A stretch of 64,000 nucleotides of DNA from Myxococcus landrumus (GTDB taxonomy: Bacteria > Myxococcota > Myxococcia > Myxococcales > Myxococcaceae), in the NCBI RefSeq assembly GCF_017301635.1, contig NZ_CP071091.1, positions 10,222,501 to 10,286,500 of the forward strand, written 5' to 3'. Shown here piece by piece: positions 47,667-55,002 of this stretch. The position numbers were made by a program, and so were the translations under genes. How positions within the stretch are numbered: the first letter of the stretch is position 1; every line of letters begins with the position of its first letter. A model generated the notes under the pieces. The model was given only the letters and a program-made list of their open reading frames with translations, did no database searches and was not told the DNA's origin.

Positions 47667-49271
47667 TCACTCGGTGAGCGAGGCGGTCGCGGCCTGGGTG
47701 TTCTCGGGGCAGCCGGACTCCACCGCGCCGATGTCCGGGGCCGAGCCGCAGAAGGGCAGGCCCAGGTCCATGCCCTGGTCCACCGCACCGGCCCCAGGGG
47801 TGAAGCCCTTCGTGTCCGTCAGCGCGGTGGCGGACTCGTTGGAGCTCACGTCCAGGCTCCGCTCCTGCTTCCAGGTGGCGAGGGGCGTGCCCTTCCAGTC
47901 GTTGGCGGGTGCGAAGAAGTCGCCGAACGTGAAGTTCGCGCCGGGCTGGTAGCTGTTGGACTCCATCGTCAGGCCTGGGGCCAGGGGGCCCAGGTTGACG
48001 GCGTGGCGCGCGTTGAAGAGGTTGTTGCGCACGACGACGTTCGATGAGGCCCCCCCGGTGCCGTGACCGATGACGAGCGCGAAGCCACTCGTCCCCGTCA
48101 CGGTGTTGTGGAGCACGCGCACGTCGTTGCCGTTCTCGATGCGGAGGGCGGCGCCCTCGGCCGACTTCATGCCGTGGATGCGGTTGCGGCGCACGGAGAC
48201 ATTGGTCGGCGGCGCGCCCACCCGGTTGCCACCCACCGAGATACCCAACGTGGCGTTGGAGATGTCGTTGTCCTCGATGGTGACGTTCTTCGCGGAGTAG
48301 TGGACGACCACCGCCTCGCCTCGAGCCGTCGCGGTCCGGGCGAAGCCATGCATGACATTTCCGCGCACCGTGACGTTGTGGCACGTCTTGAGGTCCACGG
48401 CGTTCTCGCGGTTGTCATGCAGGCGGTTGTTCTCGATGAGGACGCCACTCGCGGGCGTGTCGTTGCTGAAGCCCTCGGGCCCCAGGCACTGCACGGAGTC
48501 ACCCGAGTTGTCGTGGATGTCATTGCCGCGCACGGTGATGTCCCGCGACGTGGGGGCGATGACGATGCCGTGGGAGTCGGTGGAGCCCTGGGCGAAGTGA
48601 TGGATGTGGTTGTTCTCCAGGGTGACGCCGCGCGCGCCGCCGTCGGTGCTGATGCCGCTGCCGAAGGTGCCGGAGTGCAGCTCGCTGTCGGCGAGCACCG
48701 TGCCCTGCGTGTCACCGGCGAACGTCACGGCGAGCTGCCGCTGGCCGCGCACGTCGAACTCGAAGCCCTCGATGCGCCAGTTGGGGCGTTGGACGAGCGC
48801 CATGTACCAGCCGTCGCCCGTGGGGACGAGCTTGGGCTTGCCTTCACCGCGCAGGGTGATGGGGGCCCTGGTGGTGCCGGCGCGCACGGTGGAGTCGAAC
48901 ACCAGCTTCTCGGCGTAGGTCCCCTTCTGGACGCGGATGATTTCACCGGGCCCCGCCTGGGTGATGGCCTTGGAGATGGTGCGCAGGGGCTTGTCCTGTG
49001 TGCCTGGCGCGGTGTCGTTGCCGGAGGGACTGACGAACCACTCGCGGGAGTACTGGACAGAGGAAGGTTGCTCGGCGGGAGTGCCGGGCTCGGGGATGGG
49101 AGTGACAGGGGGACGGGTGGGCTCGGGCGCGGGCCTCGTGGGAGGCACGGTGGGGCGAGTGGCATCGGGGATGGCGCCCACGGCGGAGGGGGGCTCCTTG
49201 TTTCCAGTGCATGCGGTGAGGCCGCCCACGGAAATGGCTCCGATGAGGCAAAGGCTGCGCAGTGTGGACAT
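47667..49271 (-). CDS. Right-handed parallel beta-helix lipoprotein
   Basis: 534 residues. Lipoprotein signal (SLCLIGAISVGGLTAC), a Pro/Thr-rich linker to about residue 70, then a DUF1565-like start (WFVSPSGNDTAPGTQDKPLR) and about 12 beta-helix coils marked by N-N/N-x-x-H units (ENNHIHHFAQGS, RGNDIHDNSGDS, ENNRLHDNRENA, EDNDISNATLG, RRNRIHGMKSA, RNNLFNARHAV). The fold is that of polysaccharide lyases and adhesins; catalytic residues cannot be assigned. Surface exposure and polysaccharide binding are inferred. Confidence 0.82.
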   Translation of the reverse strand: MSTLRSLCLIGAISVGGLTACTGNKEPPSAVGAIPDATRPTVPPTRPAPEPTRPPVTPIPEPGTPAEQPSSVQYSREWFVSPSGNDTAPGTQDKPLRTISKAITQAGPGEIIRVQKGTYAEKLVFDSTVRAGTTRAPITLRGEGKPKLVPTGDGWYMALVQRPNWRIEGFEFDVRGQRQLAVTFAGDTQGTVLADSELHSGTFGSGISTDGGARGVTLENNHIHHFAQGSTDSHGIVIAPTSRDITVRGNDIHDNSGDSVQCLGPEGFSNDTPASGVLIENNRLHDNRENAVDLKTCHNVTVRGNVMHGFARTATARGEAVVVHYSAKNVTIEDNDISNATLGISVGGNRVGAPPTNVSVRRNRIHGMKSAEGAALRIENGNDVRVLHNTVTGTSGFALVIGHGTGGASSNVVVRNNLFNARHAVNLGPLAPGLTMESNSYQPGANFTFGDFFAPANDWKGTPLATWKQERSLDVSSNESATALTDTKGFTPGAGAVDQGMDLGLPFCGSAPDIGAVESGCPENTQAATASLTE

Positions 49272-49537
49272 GGGGTCGACTCCTCTGGGGGTTTGAGCGA
49301 GCCGAGAACGTTCGTGGGGACGAGCGCTATTCTGCTCGCCGCTCCGTTCGTTCCCTCGTGCAGCAGGCGGCCTGTCTGCCTTCCCGCGCGAAAGCGCTGG
49401 TGAAGGGCTGCCGTGGCTCGGGTGCAGTGGCTAACACGTGGCCGCGTGCGAATGACGCGAGACTGTGATTGCACACCCACCGAGCCGCGAGGGTTCGCAC
49501 GCCTCGGGGGAGGGCAGTCGAGGGGCTGTCGCCGCGC

Positions 49538-49930
49538 TCAGGGGAGCAGGCCCGGGATGCTCCCTCCGGGCCTTGGCGCGATGTGGAAGCGGACGGCTCC
49601 CGGCGAGAGGACACAGGCGGGCGGCGCGGGCGAAAACCAGGCAGCGCCTCGGGTCGCGCTCGTGCAAAGGCCCAGCAGCGGGGCGTTCGAGTACGGCACC
49701 CACGGCAATCCGGTGCCCGCTTCCACCGAGGGATGGGGCTCGGGCGATTGATTCAAGGCCAGCGTGCGGATGGGCGGAGCCGCGGTGTCTGGAGTGAAGG
49801 CGAGGCCCTCGGGGATGGGCTCCTCGCTCTCAGCTCGGCCGATGATGGCCTCGATGCGCTGGCTGCCTTCATCACGGGTCTCGACGTGTCCCAGGGTGCA
49901 TGCGGCCAGCAGTGACGCGGCGAGCGTCAT
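49538..49930 (-). CDS. Small lipoprotein, unknown
   Basis: 130 residues. Short lipoprotein signal MTLAASLLAAC, then an acidic and Pro-rich sequence (IIGRAESEEPIPEGLAFTPD). AAGGA lies 5 bases before ATG 49930. No family recognised. The C-terminal half (from about residue 65) has an irregular composition, so the true end or reading frame could differ. Divergent from the Clp-type gene; 266 bases of gene-free DNA follow it before the beta-helix gene start. Confidence 0.5.
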   Translation of the reverse strand: MTLAASLLAACTLGHVETRDEGSQRIEAIIGRAESEEPIPEGLAFTPDTAAPPIRTLALNQSPEPHPSVEAGTGLPWVPYSNAPLLGLCTSATRGAAWFSPAPPACVLSPGAVRFHIAPRPGGSIPGLLP

Positions 49931-50154
49931 CCATTCCTTTTGATGTTGGCGAGAGCCAGGGAGTGGGCGCATGGGCAGGCAGCCATGTTCCCTCAGGGGC
50001 GTGTAGGGAGAGAAGGGCCTGGCCGGCGGGTGTCACCCCGGGGCGAGACGTGGGGGCCTCGGTGGCGTGCTCGCCGGGGGGCGGGCGACCTGCCGTGCTC
50101 CGTCCTCCGTGGCGTTCCTAGCTTGCCCGAAGTGGTGCGCGGAGGTCGTCGACC

Positions 50155-52827
50155 ATGCTGTGTCAGAACTGCCGGACTCGCCCAGCCGCGGTCATGCTCA
50201 AGAAGGTGATGAATGGGCAGGAGACCGCCCTCAACCTCTGCAACCACTGCGCGAGCGCGATGGGCGTGGGCCTGTCCAACACCAATGGGTTCGGCAGTCT
50301 GGAGAGCCTCGTCGAACAGATGATGGGGCCGCGTCCTCGAGGCCGGGAGAACCTGCTGGCGCAGCTCTCGGAGATGGCGCAACAGGTGCTCGAGCGCGCG
50401 GCGCGGATGACGCTGGACTCAGGCTACGAGCGGATGCGCATCGAGCATCTGCTGTTGTCGCTGGTGCACTCCGTCCCGGAGCTGCGCGAGGCGCTCAAGC
50501 AGGCGGGGGCGCCCGTGGACGCGTTCGAGGCGAGGCTGGATGCGGTGATGCCGCGTCGCGAGCCGCGCAAGGCGCAGGGTGTGGCGCTGTCCTCGGGCGT
50601 CAAGCGGGTGCTCCAGATTGCTCGGCTCCAAGCGCTCCAGATGGGACACAGCTTCATCGGGCCCGAGCACCTGTTGCTGGGCATCCTCATGGAAGGGGAG
50701 AGCTTCGCCGCGCAATTCCTCTCGGGCGTCGACGTCAACGAGCTGCGCAAGCGGCTGGCCGCGTCCGTGGGTGGGGCCAATGTTCCCTCGGCGGGAGGAG
50801 GGGGACGACAGGGGAGTGGGGGACTTCCTCCGAACCTCACGCGCTTCACGCGCGACTTGTCCGTGCTCGCGCGCGCGGGAGAGCTGGACCCGGTCATCGG
50901 ACGCGAGAAGGAAATCACCCGGGTCATTCGCATCCTGAGCCGCAAGACGAAGAACAACCCGGTGCTGATTGGCGAGCCGGGGGTGGGCAAGACGGCCATC
51001 GCGGAGGGGCTCGCGCAGCGGATTGTCACGGGCGATGTCCCCGAGGTGCTCAAGGGCAAGCGCGTCCTCTCCCTGGACATCGGGAGTGTGCTGGGCGGCA
51101 CGAAGTTCCGAGGCGAGTTCGAGGAGCGCTTCAAGGGCTTGATGGATGAGATTCGCGCCCTCAAGGGGCAGATCATCCTCTTCATCGACGAGGTCCACAC
51201 GGTGGTGGGCGCGGGCGGCGCCGAGGGCGCGGTGGATGCGTCCAACCTGCTCAAGCCCGCGCTCGCGCGAGGCGAGCTCCAGTGCCTGGGGGCCACGACG
51301 CTGGATGAGTACCGGAAGAACATCGAGAAGGACGCCGCGCTGGAGCGGCGCTTCCAGCCCGTCATGGTGGCCGAGCCCACGCCGGAGCAGGCCATCGAAA
51401 TCCTGCGTGGGCTGAGGGATGCGTACGAAGCGCACCATCGCGTGAAGATTCTCGATGCGTCGCTCACGGCGTCCGTCGAGCTGTCGGACAAGTACGTCAA
51501 TGACCGCTTCCTGCCGGACAAGGCCATCGACCTGCTCGATGAGGCCTCGGCGATGGTGAGGCTGGGGGCTCGCACCGCGCCGGACCGGTTGGGCGAAGTC
51601 GAGGCGATGCTGGCCCAGAAGGAGAAGGACAAGGGCGCGGCGGTGGCGGGGGAGCGCTACGACGAGGCGAGCCGGCTCAAGGCGGACATCGACACGCTGC
51701 GCACGGAGCTGGAAGGGCTGCGTACGCAGTGGCAGTTGAAGCGCGGGGTGACAGAGCCCGCCGTGACACCGGAGGACATCGCCACGGTGGTGAGCGAGTG
51801 GACGGGGATTCCCGCGCGCAAGCTGCGGCAGGAAGAGGGGCAGCGCCTGCTGGAGATGGAGGACGCGCTGAAGCAGCGGGTGGTGGGGCAGGAGGACGCG
51901 CTCCGAGCCATCTCGGAAGCCGTGCGTCGCGCCCGCGCGGGGCTGAAGGACCCCAATCGTCCCATCGGCTCGTTCCTGTTCCTGGGGCCCACGGGCGTGG
52001 GGAAGACGGAGACGGCGCGAGCGCTCGCTGACTACTTGTTCAACGACGAGGCGGCGATGATTCGCCTGGACATGTCCGAGTTCCAGGAGCGTCACACGGT
52101 GAGCCGGCTCATCGGCGCGCCACCGGGCTATGTGGGCTACGAGGAAGCAGGCCGGCTCACGGAGGCGGTGCGCCGCAGGCCGTACTCGGTGCTGCTCTTC
52201 GACGAGGTGGAGAAGGCCCACCCGGATGTCTTCAACCTGCTGTTGCAGATTCTCGACGATGGGCGGCTGACGGACTCACGGGGCCGCACGGTGGACTTCA
52301 AGAACGCGGTCATCATCATGACGTCGAACCTGGGCTCGGAGGCCATGGGCGCCGCGCGGGCGGCGATGGGCTTCCAGCGCTCGGCGGATGAGGAGCGCAC
52401 GGGGCGGGAGCGCGCTCGCGACGCGGTGATGAACGCGCTGCGCGGCCACTTCCGGCCCGAGTTCATCAACCGCATCGACGACATCATCGTGTTCCATCCG
52501 CTCAACGCGGAGCAGCTCCGGCGCATCGTGGACTCGCTGCTGGACGCCACGCGCCGCAAGCTGCATGGGCAGAACCTGAGCCTGGAGCTGACGGATGCGG
52601 CGCGCGACTCGTTGGCGGAGCGCGGCTTCGAGCCTCGCTATGGTGCGCGCCCCCTGCGGCGCGTCATCCAGCGCGAAGTGGAGACGGAGATCAGCCGGAT
52701 GCTGCTGCGCGGCGAGGTGAGCGAGGGCCAGCGCATCCTCATCGACTTCCAGGACGGGCACTTCGTCTTCAAGGCCGAGCCTGGGACTCGCGAGGAGGCC
52801 GTGTCCACCCCGGTGCCGCCCGTGTGA
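50155..52827 (+). CDS. ClpC-like AAA+ unfoldase with N-terminal McsA-type zinc finger
   Basis: 890 residues. Residues 1-33 ([13 protein letters not shown] and NLCNHCA) carry two CxxC pairs in the CxxCxxRPA...NG...LCxxCA pattern of McsA. Then a Clp_N repeat pair ([29 protein letters not shown]), AAA+ domain 1 (Walker [14 protein letters not shown] near 274, [16 protein letters not shown]), a middle segment with a UVR-like coil ([16 protein letters not shown]), AAA+ domain 2 ([16 protein letters not shown] near 611, [13 protein letters not shown]) and a ClpB D2-small domain. MGF in [19 protein letters not shown] is placed like the ClpP-docking IGF/VGF loop of ClpC. Probable protein unfoldase for ClpP. 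Confidence 0.85.
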
Positions 52828-52832
52828 CGGCG

Positions 52833-53159
52833 CTACGGTGAAGGACGCGTGCTCTCGAGAATCCACGCGAGGTAGGGCGCGTGGCCGTCGGCGACATCGA
52901 CGCGGAGCACCTCGGGGACCTGGTACGGGTGCAGCGCGACGATGCGCGAGCGCAGGGCGTCGAAGAGGGATGCGCGCGTCTTGAAGAGGATGAGCGCTTC
53001 CACGTCGTCCTGCACCTTGCCTTCCCATCGGTAGATGGAGCGCAGCCCTGGGAGGATGTTCCCGCAGGCCGCGAGCTGCTCCTCCACCACGGTGCGAGCC
53101 AGCTCAGCGGCCTTGTCGGCGGACGGCGCGGTGACGAGGACGAGGATGGCGTCGGACAT
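52833..53159 (-). CDS. cutA: CutA-like divalent-cation tolerance protein
   Basis: 108 residues, normal CutA length. VLVTAPSADKAAELARTVVE, LAACGNILPGLRSIYRWEGK, ILFKTRASLFDAL and HPYQVPEVLRVDVADG are the conserved strands and loops of the trimeric CutA fold. Role in copper tolerance in E. coli is indirect. It begins 4 bases after the DnaC-like gene stop, so it belongs to that operon. Confidence 0.92.
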   Translation of the reverse strand: MSDAILVLVTAPSADKAAELARTVVEEQLAACGNILPGLRSIYRWEGKVQDDVEALILFKTRASLFDALRSRIVALHPYQVPEVLRVDVADGHAPYLAWILESTRPSP

Positions 53160-53163
53160 CGCC

Positions 53164-54126
53164 TCAGCGCCCCATGCTGCGCATGCCCGTGGGCGGCGGG
53201 TGCAGCGAGTCCATCTCCTGTCGCGTGCGCCGGCGGTCCGGCGTGTCCTTCGGCAGCTCGACGAAGGTGCACATCTCGCAGAGCCGGCTGTAGATGCGCT
53301 CACCCACGCGCTCGCGGAGGAGCTCGGTGTCCTTCACCACGGCCTTGGCGTCCTCCGTCGTCCGGTATCCCGAGGGGCCGCCGGGCCGTGCCTTCCGCTC
53401 GGGCTCCAGCGAGTAGTTCGTCGCGAACAGCGTGGTGCGCCCCGCGTTGTAGCGGCGGGCGATGAGCTCATCGAGCGTCTCCATCTCGAACGGGCTGCCG
53501 CGTCCCTTGCCCAGCTCGTCGATGGCCAGCACTTCCACTTCCGACAGCGGTCCGATGATTTCGCCGCCGCTCTTGCCCTCCTGGAAGCCGCGCCGGATGG
53601 TGGCGTAGAGCAGCGAAATCTCCACGTAGCGCGCACGAACGCCCATCTCGATGACGAGGTGGCCCAGCGTGGCCGCGAGCAGGTGCGTCTTCCCCGTGCC
53701 CACCGGGCCGCTCAGGATGAAGCCCTTGGACGTGGCGCCCTTCACGAACTGGTGGCCGAAGTGCATCGCCACGCCGCGGCCCCGGTCCTGTGCTTCGTTG
53801 AAGGCCCGGTAGTTGTCGAACGACGCATGCGCCACCACGCCGGGCAGCCGCACCTCGTTGTAGAGCGCCACCCGACGGCGCCGCAGCGTGCACCCACACG
53901 GCTCCATCACTTCGTAGCGCCGGGGCCCCACCTTCTGGCTGAACGTGCCCTCGCGCTCCACCAGCACGTGACCGCGTCCACCGCAGATGGAGCAGTTCTC
54001 CGAGCAACCGCACACGCGCGCCAGGGCCTGATCTCCCTGCCGTTCGATGACATACGTCCGGCCGGCACAGACACGGCAGACGTCGCCGCTCGCCTTTGTT
54101 CCCACACCCATCTCGCGCATCGCCAT
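53164..54126 (-). CDS. Zinc-finger DnaC/IstB-like AAA+ ATPase
   Basis: 320 residues. The N-terminus has eight cysteines in CxxC, CxC, CxxC and CxC pairs (Cys17/20, 39/41, 45/48, 77/79), including a DnaJ-type CSICGGRGH, so it should bind two zincs. The AAA+ core has Walker A SGPVGTGKTHLLAA at 139-152, Walker B EVLAIDELGKGR and sensor 1 TTLFATNYSLEPE, matching DnaC/DnaI helicase loaders and IstB. No transposase is nearby, so a helicase-loader-like role is more likely than a transposition helper. It is 57 bases downstream of the 218-residue gene. Confidence 0.8.
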   Translation of the reverse strand: MAMREMGVGTKASGDVCRVCAGRTYVIERQGDQALARVCGCSENCSICGGRGHVLVEREGTFSQKVGPRRYEVMEPCGCTLRRRRVALYNEVRLPGVVAHASFDNYRAFNEAQDRGRGVAMHFGHQFVKGATSKGFILSGPVGTGKTHLLAATLGHLVIEMGVRARYVEISLLYATIRRGFQEGKSGGEIIGPLSEVEVLAIDELGKGRGSPFEMETLDELIARRYNAGRTTLFATNYSLEPERKARPGGPSGYRTTEDAKAVVKDTELLRERVGERIYSRLCEMCTFVELPKDTPDRRRTRQEMDSLHPPPTGMRSMGR

Positions 54127-54183
54127 AGCAGAGCCCTTCGCCGCCTCATCGCAAACTGAACGCGTGAGCAGTCCTCGCCCTCG

Positions 54184-54840
54184 TCAGACTTCCTTCACGC
54201 CCAGTCGCCGCCGCACCGCCGCCACCAGTCGGAATCTCCGGGATACCTTTCGTGCACGCACCGACATCACCTGCTGTTCAGTACCCACCGAAAGTGCGCC
54301 GCGCCACACCTCGCGTCGCTGCGGGAAGGGCAGGGCGCGCAGCAGCGCCAGGAAACTCAAGGCTTCCTGCGCATCCATCACCGCGGGCTCTTGTGGGATA
54401 CGCGCCAACACCGTGCTTCGCAGCCACGTCACCCGAGCCACGAGGGTGGGCTCACGCCCCGCCAGGTCCTCCAGCGCGTCGATGAGCCGGGCGTGCCGCG
54501 TCTCCTCCCACGACAGCGCCTTGCGACGCTTCGAGGAGGGTTCGGGCGGGGCGCTCGCACCCGCCGCCAGCGAGCGGTACTTCTTGATCTCCGCGTCCAC
54601 CTGCCTGCGGCACGCGCGAAGATTGCGCAGCACGGGCTCACCGGGGCGCGCATCCCACAGCGCCTTCTCCGCGGAGCGGGAGATGCCCCGAGCGACCACC
54701 TCGAAGGGAACGCCCTCTCGCGCCCACGCCGTCAACAGCTCCGAGTCGAGCGCCGACAGCATCAACCCCGCGCCGCGCACCGCGAGGAAGTAGTCCTGCA
54801 CCAGCTCTTCGAAACTGGCGCTCTCCGGCAACAGACTCAT
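54184..54840 (-). CDS. Hypothetical protein paired with the DnaC-like ATPase
   Basis: 218 residues, no signal peptide. The N-terminus reads SFEELVQDYFLAVRGAGLMLSAL, then DSELLTAWAREGVPFEVVARGI, a pattern I associate with a conserved deltaproteobacterial protein that accompanies helicase-loader-like genes. A charged linker (SSKRRKALSWEE) follows, and the C-terminus is basic (RARKVSRRFRLVAAVRRR). Could be a DnaD/primosome-like partner of the ATPase; that is an inference from gene order. Divergent from gltD across 286 bases. Confidence 0.6.
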   Translation of the reverse strand: MSLLPESASFEELVQDYFLAVRGAGLMLSALDSELLTAWAREGVPFEVVARGISRSAEKALWDARPGEPVLRNLRACRRQVDAEIKKYRSLAAGASAPPEPSSKRRKALSWEETRHARLIDALEDLAGREPTLVARVTWLRSTVLARIPQEPAVMDAQEALSFLALLRALPFPQRREVWRGALSVGTEQQVMSVRARKVSRRFRLVAAVRRRLGVKEV

Positions 54841-55002
54841 GATCCGACAACGCTCCGGGCTTGGTGGGCGACCGGACAGCCGGCCGACCGTCCCCCCATA
54901 CCCGGTGGGTCCGACAAGGCAACCCTCTTGACACTATTTTCACAGCATCTCTGAAAGTTTTTCGGCCTGCTTTCCACTTCCGGAGCAGCCAGCCAGTCAG
55001 GG

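What the first reader, a model, noticed from the sequence alone, without database searches (positions are those of the whole stretch)
50155..50260. McsA-type zinc finger fused to a ClpC-like unfoldase
The first 33 residues have the CxxCxxRPA...NG...LCxxCA layout of McsA, the zinc-finger adaptor that works with McsB arginine kinase and ClpC in Firmicutes. Here it is part of the Clp ATPase itself. It suggests that a separate adaptor was absorbed into the unfoldase, or that zinc/redox state gates substrate choice. No mcsB is visible nearby.
Basis: partly seen in the sequence, partly recalled or inferred. Interest (0 to 1): 0.65.

Follow-up and report, generated by a model that had tools for sequence, protein, structure and literature searches.

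The report
Zinc-headed ClpC-type unfoldase in Myxococcus
A protein-unfolding machine of a soil bacterium carries at its front a small zinc-binding module that other bacteria use to grip damaged proteins, so it probably finds and destroys clumped proteins by itself; the principle is already known, but this particular combination of parts looks like a little-described variant.

Summary
Residues 1-33 of the 890-aa Clp ATPase at 50155-52827 form a C3-C6-C29-C32 module matching McsA (NCBIfam McsA, E 5e-11; solved McsA 8wtb, 2.7e-6). Start, ribosome site and cysteines are conserved. "McsA absorbed into an unfoldase" is the weaker reading: the same module heads ClpE and the disaggregases ClpG/ClpK, and its homology with McsA is in print (PMC10641755, PMC13125188). 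A profile of the module finds McsA, ClpE and ClpG N1 among solved structures. This protein combines zinc module, ClpE-like GFGSLESL tail, double Clp_N, ClpC-type motor and a ClpP-type MGF loop. It is ClpE-like at the front and ClpP end, ClpG-like in layout, and groups with neither. McsB was not found in this or five other fusion genomes. Most likely it works like ClpE-ClpP: adaptor-free recognition of misfolded or aggregated protein, then degradation (inferred). The architecture recurs in Myxococcota, Actinomycetota and Sericytochromatia-type bacteria. Of 27 Myxococcus genomes, 11 carry this form, 9 a relative without the ClpP loop, 7 neither, none both. New variant of a known kind.

The parts
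50141..50145 (+). ribosome-binding site GGAGG
   Evidence: sequence; conserved in 11 of 11 Myxococcus genomes with the gene, own included, and one more distant genome
50155..52827 (+). zinc-headed ClpC-type ATPase, 890 aa plus stop
   Evidence: ORF; Pfam Clp_N, AAA, AAA_lid_9, AAA_2, ClpB_D2-small; best solved relative ClpC/MecB 3j3t over residues 138-875
50155..50262 (+). zinc module, residues 1-36 (C3, C6, C29, C32), McsA/ClpE/ClpG-N1 type
   Evidence: NF053706 E 5e-11; 8wtb, 29hb, 8p66 found by the module profile; predicted beta-hairpin plus helix with 8p66 as first Foldseek match, prob 1.00 but E 0.039
50284..50328 (+). [15 protein letters not shown] tail, residues 44-58, counterpart of the ClpE F52/F54 stretch
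   Evidence: aligned with ClpE FGFGSLDDL; F52/F54 matter for aggregate recognition in ClpE (PMC13125188 section 8)
50368..50769 (+). double Clp_N (N2) domain, residues about 72-205 (limits estimated)
   Evidence: PF02861, 2 stretches; model of residues 1-216 matches ClpC N-domains (9din E 5e-9)
50839..51384 (+). AAA1 core (limits estimated), Walker A GEPGVGKT, Walker B LFIDEVH, pore loop GTKFRG
   Evidence: PF00004; motif positions
51568..51747 (+). ClpC-type middle domain, limits estimated by eye
   Evidence: position within AAA_lid_9 region and alignment to ClpC
51832..52485 (+). AAA2 core (start estimated), Walker A GPTGVGKT, Walker B LLFDEVEK, pore loop PPGYVG
   Evidence: PF07724 E 7e-70, residues 602-777
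52366..52374 (+). MGF tripeptide of the ClpP-docking type loop
   Evidence: in the place of LGF/VGF of ClpC and ClpE; [LM]GF in 11 of 11 Myxococcus orthologues, own included
52501..52740 (+). D2 small domain
   Evidence: PF10431 E 9e-26

Best explanation
The protein is a ClpC-type, ClpP-partnered unfoldase whose N-terminus carries the zinc module shared by ClpE, ClpG/ClpK (N1 domain) and McsA. Six modules on a hexamer would grip exposed hydrophobic stretches of misfolded or aggregated proteins through the first beta-strand (L15) and the GFGSLESL tail. The motor would then pull the polypeptide through both AAA rings and, by the MGF loop, feed it into ClpP. It would therefore be a self-targeting degrading disaggregase that needs no McsA/McsB or MecA, working like ClpE-ClpP. 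Zinc would hold the module folded; its loss under oxidation could unfold the module and remove it. Shown here: module, tail, Clp_N, motor motifs, ClpP-type loop, clpP genes in the genome, no McsB found. Inferred: zinc binding, aggregate binding, ClpP docking, redox sensitivity.
For: Module homology. Cysteine positions C3/C6/C29/C32 are the same as in E. faecalis ClpE, which binds zinc. The residue equivalent to ClpG V17 (aggregate binding) is L15: L, F or V in 22 of 22 aligned rows (window included), and hydrophobic or tyrosine in 32 of 32 zinc-bearing Clp rows in which the motif was found. The tail GFGSLESL matches ClpE FGFGSLDDL, whose F52/F54 matter for aggregate recognition. ClpP-type loop [LM]GF in 11 of 11 Myxococcus orthologues. 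Two full ClpP genes, plus a third, partial match over the cut-off in a 619-aa frame that was not examined; one clpP lies beside a clpX-like frame (motif only). McsB not found in 6 of 6 fusion genomes, found in 3 of 3 controls, one of which is the query's own record. ClpE-ClpP degrades aggregates without adaptors (PMC13125188) and fusing N1 to ClpB makes it a stand-alone disaggregase (PMC8024975 passages).
Against: No biochemistry, expression or proteomic data. The second ClpG contact, L21, is M19 here and varies (M/T/V/A/S/D). The first ClpE phenylalanine (F52) is not kept, and some orthologues lack the second (GLGSLESL, RLGSLESL). The module evolves faster than Clp_N in pairwise dN/dS (for example 0.114/0.143 against 0.045/0.628 for L021, only 36 codons), so it is less constrained than its neighbour. 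In ClpE the zinc part alone is not essential for aggregate degradation (2.6-fold effect). The gene was not found in 16 of 27 Myxococcus genomes, so it is dispensable in the genus. Neighbours (beta-helix protein, cutA, IstB-like ATPase) suggest no pathway.
Confidence: 0.68

Rival explanations
1. Captured adaptor: a free McsA-like protein was fused to a canonical ClpC and replaced the McsA/McsB adaptor pair.
For: Best sequence match of the module is McsA; motor body is ClpC-like; no McsB found.
Against: Only the N-terminal about 57 residues of McsA are matched and the score is far below the McsA cut-off (42.6 against 210 bits). The module also heads ClpE and ClpG/ClpK, and zinc-bearing rows form several deep lineages needing at least 3 changes. 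The six Actinomycetota and Sericytochromatia-type fusion genomes also keep a canonical ClpC without zinc module, so the fusion did not replace it there.
Confidence: 0.15
2. Redox or zinc switch: the module is mainly a sensor whose oxidation changes substrate choice or destroys the module, with substrate gripping done by Clp_N.
For: Four invariant cysteines; a truncated ClpE is reported on oxidative stress; review proposal that the ClpE N-domain could sense oxidative stress where McsA/McsB are lacking (PMC5506225 passages).
Against: ClpG N1 with bound zinc is a substrate-binding domain; the hydrophobic strand position and, mostly, the tail motif are kept as for binding. Not tested here.
Confidence: 0.12
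3. The module is a remnant with little function, kept because it lies at the start of the gene.
For: Higher dN/dS than the neighbouring domain; ClpE still degrades aggregates without its zinc part at 2.6-fold lower efficiency.
Against: Cysteines and RPA invariant from Myxococcus to Anaeromyxobacter and in the Sericytochromatia- and Rubrobacter-type rows.
Confidence: 0.05

Closest known systems
ClpE (Bacillota; E. faecalis ClpE-ClpP, PMC13125188, PDB 29hb)
   Same: N-terminal zinc module with C3/C6/C29/C32, following Phe/Leu tail (FGFGSLDDL), ClpC-like M-domain, VGF-type ClpP tripeptide, two AAA rings
   Different: the ClpE proteins seen (724 and 746 aa) have no Clp_N domain; the window protein has a double Clp_N and 890 aa, and its motor body does not group with ClpE
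ClpG / ClpK stand-alone disaggregases (PMC10641755, PMC8024975, PMC2976762)
   Same: N1 zinc module plus N2 (Clp_N) plus ClpC-like M-domain plus two AAA rings; V17-equivalent hydrophobic
   Different: ClpK lacks the ClpP tripeptide, as do the ClpK and ClpG-like rows here; characterised ClpG uses three Cys and one His for zinc; the window protein has MGF and four Cys and lies outside their clade
Canonical ClpC (ClpC/MecB)
   Same: Clp_N fold, motor, M-domain, ClpP-type loop
   Different: canonical ClpC has no zinc module and depends on MecA or McsA/McsB (PMC13125188); different clade
McsA (PDB 8wtb)
   Same: first about 57 residues
   Different: McsA is a separate protein (156-178 aa in the stand-alone hits) that works with McsB; here the module is the head of the ATPase and McsB was not found

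Membership tests
ClpE | N1-type zinc module at the N-terminus | tested here: met
   29hb E 2.4e-10 with the module profile; same cysteine positions; zinc itself not measured
ClpE | ClpP tripeptide (VGF type) in AAA2 | tested here: met
   MGF at residues 738-740; docking itself not tested
ClpE | no Clp_N between zinc module and AAA1 | tested here: not met
   double Clp_N, PF02861 E 2e-16
ClpE | groups with ClpE by motor body | tested here: not met
   13-row Myxococcota plus Sericytochromatia-type clade, 100/99, ClpE elsewhere
ClpG/ClpK | N1 zinc module followed by N2 | tested here: met
ClpG/ClpK | no ClpP tripeptide | tested here: not met
   MGF present
ClpG/ClpK | groups with ClpG/ClpK by motor body | tested here: not met
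   NCBIfam ClpG 844 bits against cut-off 1900
ClpC | double Clp_N, ClpC motor and ClpP-type loop | tested here: met
ClpC | begins with Clp_N, no zinc module; groups with canonical ClpC | tested here: not met
   zinc module present; the 12 canonical ClpC rows form another group
ClpC | adaptor-dependent activation | not testable with these tools
   needs biochemistry
McsA | stand-alone adaptor reaching the family score cut-off | tested here: not met
   42.6 bits against 210, model positions 1-57 of 182 only
McsA | McsB partner in the genome | tested here: not met
   0 of 6 fusion genomes; 3 of 3 controls, one being the query's own record

The most novel reading that the evidence does not exclude
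A separate Clp subfamily exists outside Bacillota: N1 zinc module plus N2 plus a ClpP-docking ClpC motor, that is, a one-protein degrading disaggregase that needs no adaptor. In Myxococcus it alternates between species with a related zinc-headed Clp that lacks the ClpP loop (11 against 9 of 27 genomes, none with both), so that species appear to choose between degrading and rescuing aggregated protein. The zinc module may be an ancestral part of the ClpC/ClpE/ClpG branch, from which McsA was later set free.
Probability: 0.3. Interest if true: 0.6.

Novelty: new variant of a known kind. Interest (0 to 1): 0.38.

Why it matters
The ClpE study itself says that the division of work between degrading and refolding disaggregases remains to be elucidated (PMC13125188 passage). 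Myxococcus offers species with either a ClpP-coupled or an uncoupled zinc-headed Clp in one genus, with two ClpPs studied in M. xanthus (PMC11423568 passages). The spread in Myxococcota, Actinomycetota and Sericytochromatia-type bacteria suggests that adaptor-free, zinc-headed Clp proteases are not a Bacillota speciality, which bears on whether McsA is a donor or a product of the Clp zinc module.

Tried and rejected
Pfam on the first 60 residues gave only sub-threshold hits (DUF7685 E 0.004, zf-C4pol 0.24); the McsA match rests on NCBIfam and PDB searches. Pfam PF00217 in the own genome was silent, but its 14 controls were silent too, so the McsB result rests. A plasmid search with the zinc region gave 18 records, all of Bacillota genera, annotated where annotated as Clp subunit, McsA or UvrB/UvrC-motif protein. 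Foldseek on the 216-aa model lists Clp N-domains (the 50 rows shown); the module alone gave 8p66 first but no match under E 0.001, and VIA-align gave 8p66 Z 3.8 with an unrelated Lsr2 chain at 3.9, so structure supports but does not prove the fold. McsA and ClpE chains were not among the 50 rows shown in either list. The retention of the glutamates aligned with the phosphoarginine-binding ones of ClpC (identified from recall; window RIEH and GPEH) was judged uninformative because I recall that Clp_N repeats keep them generally. Horizontal transfer from Sericytochromatia-type bacteria is suggested by nesting, but sampling is thin and direction unproven; in the Archangium, Anaeromyxobacter, Sericytochromatia and Rubrobacter-type loci the gene does not lie beside cutA within the flanks held. 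The loop-change count (5) is not used: two actinobacterial ClpC rows were scored loop-less because the pattern missed their sequence. The exclusion of the two types in Myxococcus (P 0.0024 if genomes were independent) is not independent evidence, since related genomes share a type and two or three events may explain it. Only the best 32-34 candidate stretches per genome were scored, so a weak second copy could be missed. A family check of the presumed ClpA frame failed for wrong coordinates and was not repeated.

Papers: passages of PMC10641755 and its section 6; outline with abstract, passages and sections 8 and 9 of PMC13125188; passages only of PMC2976762, PMC5506225, PMC8024975, PMC12634643, PMC11423568, PMC6617876; PMC180999 on L. 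lactis ClpE is not held. That the N1 + Clp_N + ClpP-loop architecture looks undescribed rests on listings of searches of one open-access library; subscription papers (for example an article on proteobacterial ClpC divergence, recalled, not seen) may cover it.

Full report
OBSERVATION. The ORF at 50155-52827 (+) encodes 890 aa. Its ATG stands nine bases after GGAGG, and this start region is conserved in 11 of 11 Myxococcus genomes with the gene (the window's own included) and in one genome of a related genus. Residues 1-33 read [33 protein letters not shown]. The McsA family model matches residues 1-56 (E 5.2e-11) and solved McsA 8wtb residues 1-52 (E 2.7e-6). A profile of 15 such modules finds, in the solved structures, McsA (3e-17), ClpE 29hb (2.4e-10) and the ClpG/ClpK N1 domain 8p66 (7e-4); the six further hits at E 0.18-0.77 look unrelated. 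AlphaFold models show a beta-hairpin (13-19, 22-28) and a helix (30-35 or 30-36) (block-mean pLDDT 82-85 for residues 1-30, 72-82). ClpG N1 is the first Foldseek match (prob 1.00, but E 0.039).

REST OF THE PROTEIN. Clp_N twice, two AAA modules, AAA_lid and D2-small. The N2 part is modelled like ClpC N-domains. Walker and pore-loop motifs are present. The AAA2 loop carries MGF where ClpC and ClpE carry LGF/VGF; ClpK, the ClpG-like plasmid protein and type B below do not. The best solved relative is ClpC/MecB (3j3t, residues 138-875).

GENOME. The genus is Myxococcus: the same-genus genome G115 and named locus L037 (Myxococcus eversor) give the same gene at the same contig coordinate, 802515. 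The 10.37-Mb genome holds six Clp_N matches in five proteins (L001 and L004 lie in one frame): the window protein, a ClpB (groups with ClpB), a 771-aa frame that I take for ClpA without a check, and two further long frames. It has three matches to the ClpP family over the cut-off, two full ones and a partial one in a 619-aa frame; one clpP lies beside a clpX-like frame (motif only). McsB, searched with a Paenibacillus McsB, was not found in this genome and five other fusion genomes, nor in a Lactobacillus genome with ClpE; it was found in 3 of 3 controls, one being the query's own record. The genes next to clp on both sides lie on the minus strand, so it probably stands alone; the neighbours are a beta-helix protein, cutA, an IstB-like ATPase and, further off, a TPR protein and an amino-acid kinase.

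DISTRIBUTION. In 195 Myxococcota genomes the window type is found in 24 and any such zinc module in 39. The named scan used two peptide patterns, so it is narrow; of 56 stretches that matched a pattern, 33 were confirmed. Eleven of the 33 are myxobacterial (one an Archangium fragment of 334 aa, one a MAG with runs of N), two come from one Sericytochromatia MAG, two are Rubrobacter-type, one is ClpE (724 aa) and 17 are stand-alone proteins of 156-178 aa, McsA-like. In 296 Actinomycetota genomes the module profile matches 78; 47 of 87 places lie in frames of 700 aa or more (40 genomes) and 40 in frames of 320 aa or less. Of 16 such long-frame regions fetched, 15 gave a Clp-like ORF under my filter and one (L121) did not; three of the 15 (L118-L120) are very divergent. 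In the phylum of the Sericytochromatia MAG, 6 of 194 match. All six Actinomycetota and Sericytochromatia-type fusion genomes also hold a canonical ClpC without the module; in the four Myxococcota genomes of that call the only matches at E 1e-150 were zinc-headed ones (G119 one, G036 two, G113 and G060 none).

TREE. With the motor bodies only (50 rows, N-terminal part left out), the window groups with five other Myxococcota and seven Sericytochromatia-type rows (13 rows, 100/99), apart from an Actinomycetota clade (10 rows, 96/93), a clade with ClpG/ClpK and type B (10 rows, 100/99, one row without module) and canonical ClpC with ClpE (14 rows, 90/87, not a strong branch). Module labels of four rows (L117, L125, L192, the E. 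coli plasmid protein) were set by the profile hit or by eye, not by the pattern. Fourteen rows of a first tree (48 rows) had been dropped as long-branched or redundant and 16 added; that first tree also put the window with the Sericytochromatia-type rows (17 rows, 98/91) but placed L116/L117 apart from the other Actinomycetota and ClpE with the long-branched ClpL and ClpA frames. Presence of the module needs at least three changes. This neither proves one origin nor supports a recent capture of McsA.

TWO TYPES IN ONE GENUS. Among 27 Myxococcus genomes 11 have the window type beside cutA; in the other 16 no clp was seen there (in one, L151, the contig ends 238 bases beyond cutA), and in nine of the 16 the beta-helix gene was seen beside cutA. 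Nine of the 16 carry, elsewhere, a second zinc-headed Clp of 884 aa (type B, four cysteines) without the ClpP tripeptide (9 of 9), whereas the window type has [LM]GF in 11 of 11; 7 genomes have neither and none has both. M. xanthus clpC (MXAN_4832) is said to affect development and sporulation (PMC11423568 passage); whether it is type B was not established here.

MECHANISM. ClpG N1 binds zinc by C6/C9/C31/H34 and aggregates by V17/L21. E. faecalis ClpE uses C3/C6/C29/C32 for zinc and F52/F54 in the following stretch for aggregates, carries the ClpP motif VGF and degrades aggregates without adaptors. The window protein has C3/C6/C29/C32, L15 at the V17 place (L, F or V in 22 of 22 aligned rows), M19 at the variable L21 place, and [15 protein letters not shown] aligned with FGFGSLDDL. 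The tail is not invariant: some orthologues have L for F. The inferred role is a self-targeting ClpP-coupled disaggregase with an extra N2 domain. Against a strict requirement for the zinc part stand the milder effect of its removal in ClpE and the faster evolution of the module here.

VERDICT. Observation confirmed; 'absorbed adaptor' is one of two directions and not the better supported; the kind (zinc-headed Clp ATPase) is known; the combination and its spread outside Bacillota, with the alternation inside Myxococcus, is the part that may be new.

Noticed in passing
L185, L223-L231 (nine Myxococcus genomes): A second zinc-headed Clp of 884 aa (type B) lacking the ClpP tripeptide; not seen together with the window type in 27 genomes.
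   Followed up: partly
L078, L192: ClpG-like proteins whose fourth zinc-ligand position reads aspartate (C-x2-C ... C-x2-D) instead of Cys or His.
   Followed up: no
L049 with L042 (G197); L130 with L122 (G518); L124 (G538): Sericytochromatia-type zinc-headed Clps inside the window's clade without the ClpP tripeptide; in G197 and G518 another copy of the same genome has it.
   Followed up: partly
L109/L110 (G300) and L111/L112 (G289): Actinomycetota genomes with two zinc-headed Clps, one with and one without the ClpP tripeptide.
   Followed up: partly
window 49000-55000; loci L139-L165: Presence or absence of the clp gene beside cutA across Myxococcus, a possible insertion or deletion site.
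   Followed up: partly
L128, L129 (own genome): Two further long Clp_N-bearing frames (891 and 883 aa); the first groups with ClpV on the first tree, the second is very divergent.
   Followed up: no
control genomes: The B. subtilis control did not ring for Clp_N, nor any control for the McsB family, although clpC and mcsB are known in B. subtilis (PMC5506225 passages); the held record may be incomplete or masked.
   Followed up: no
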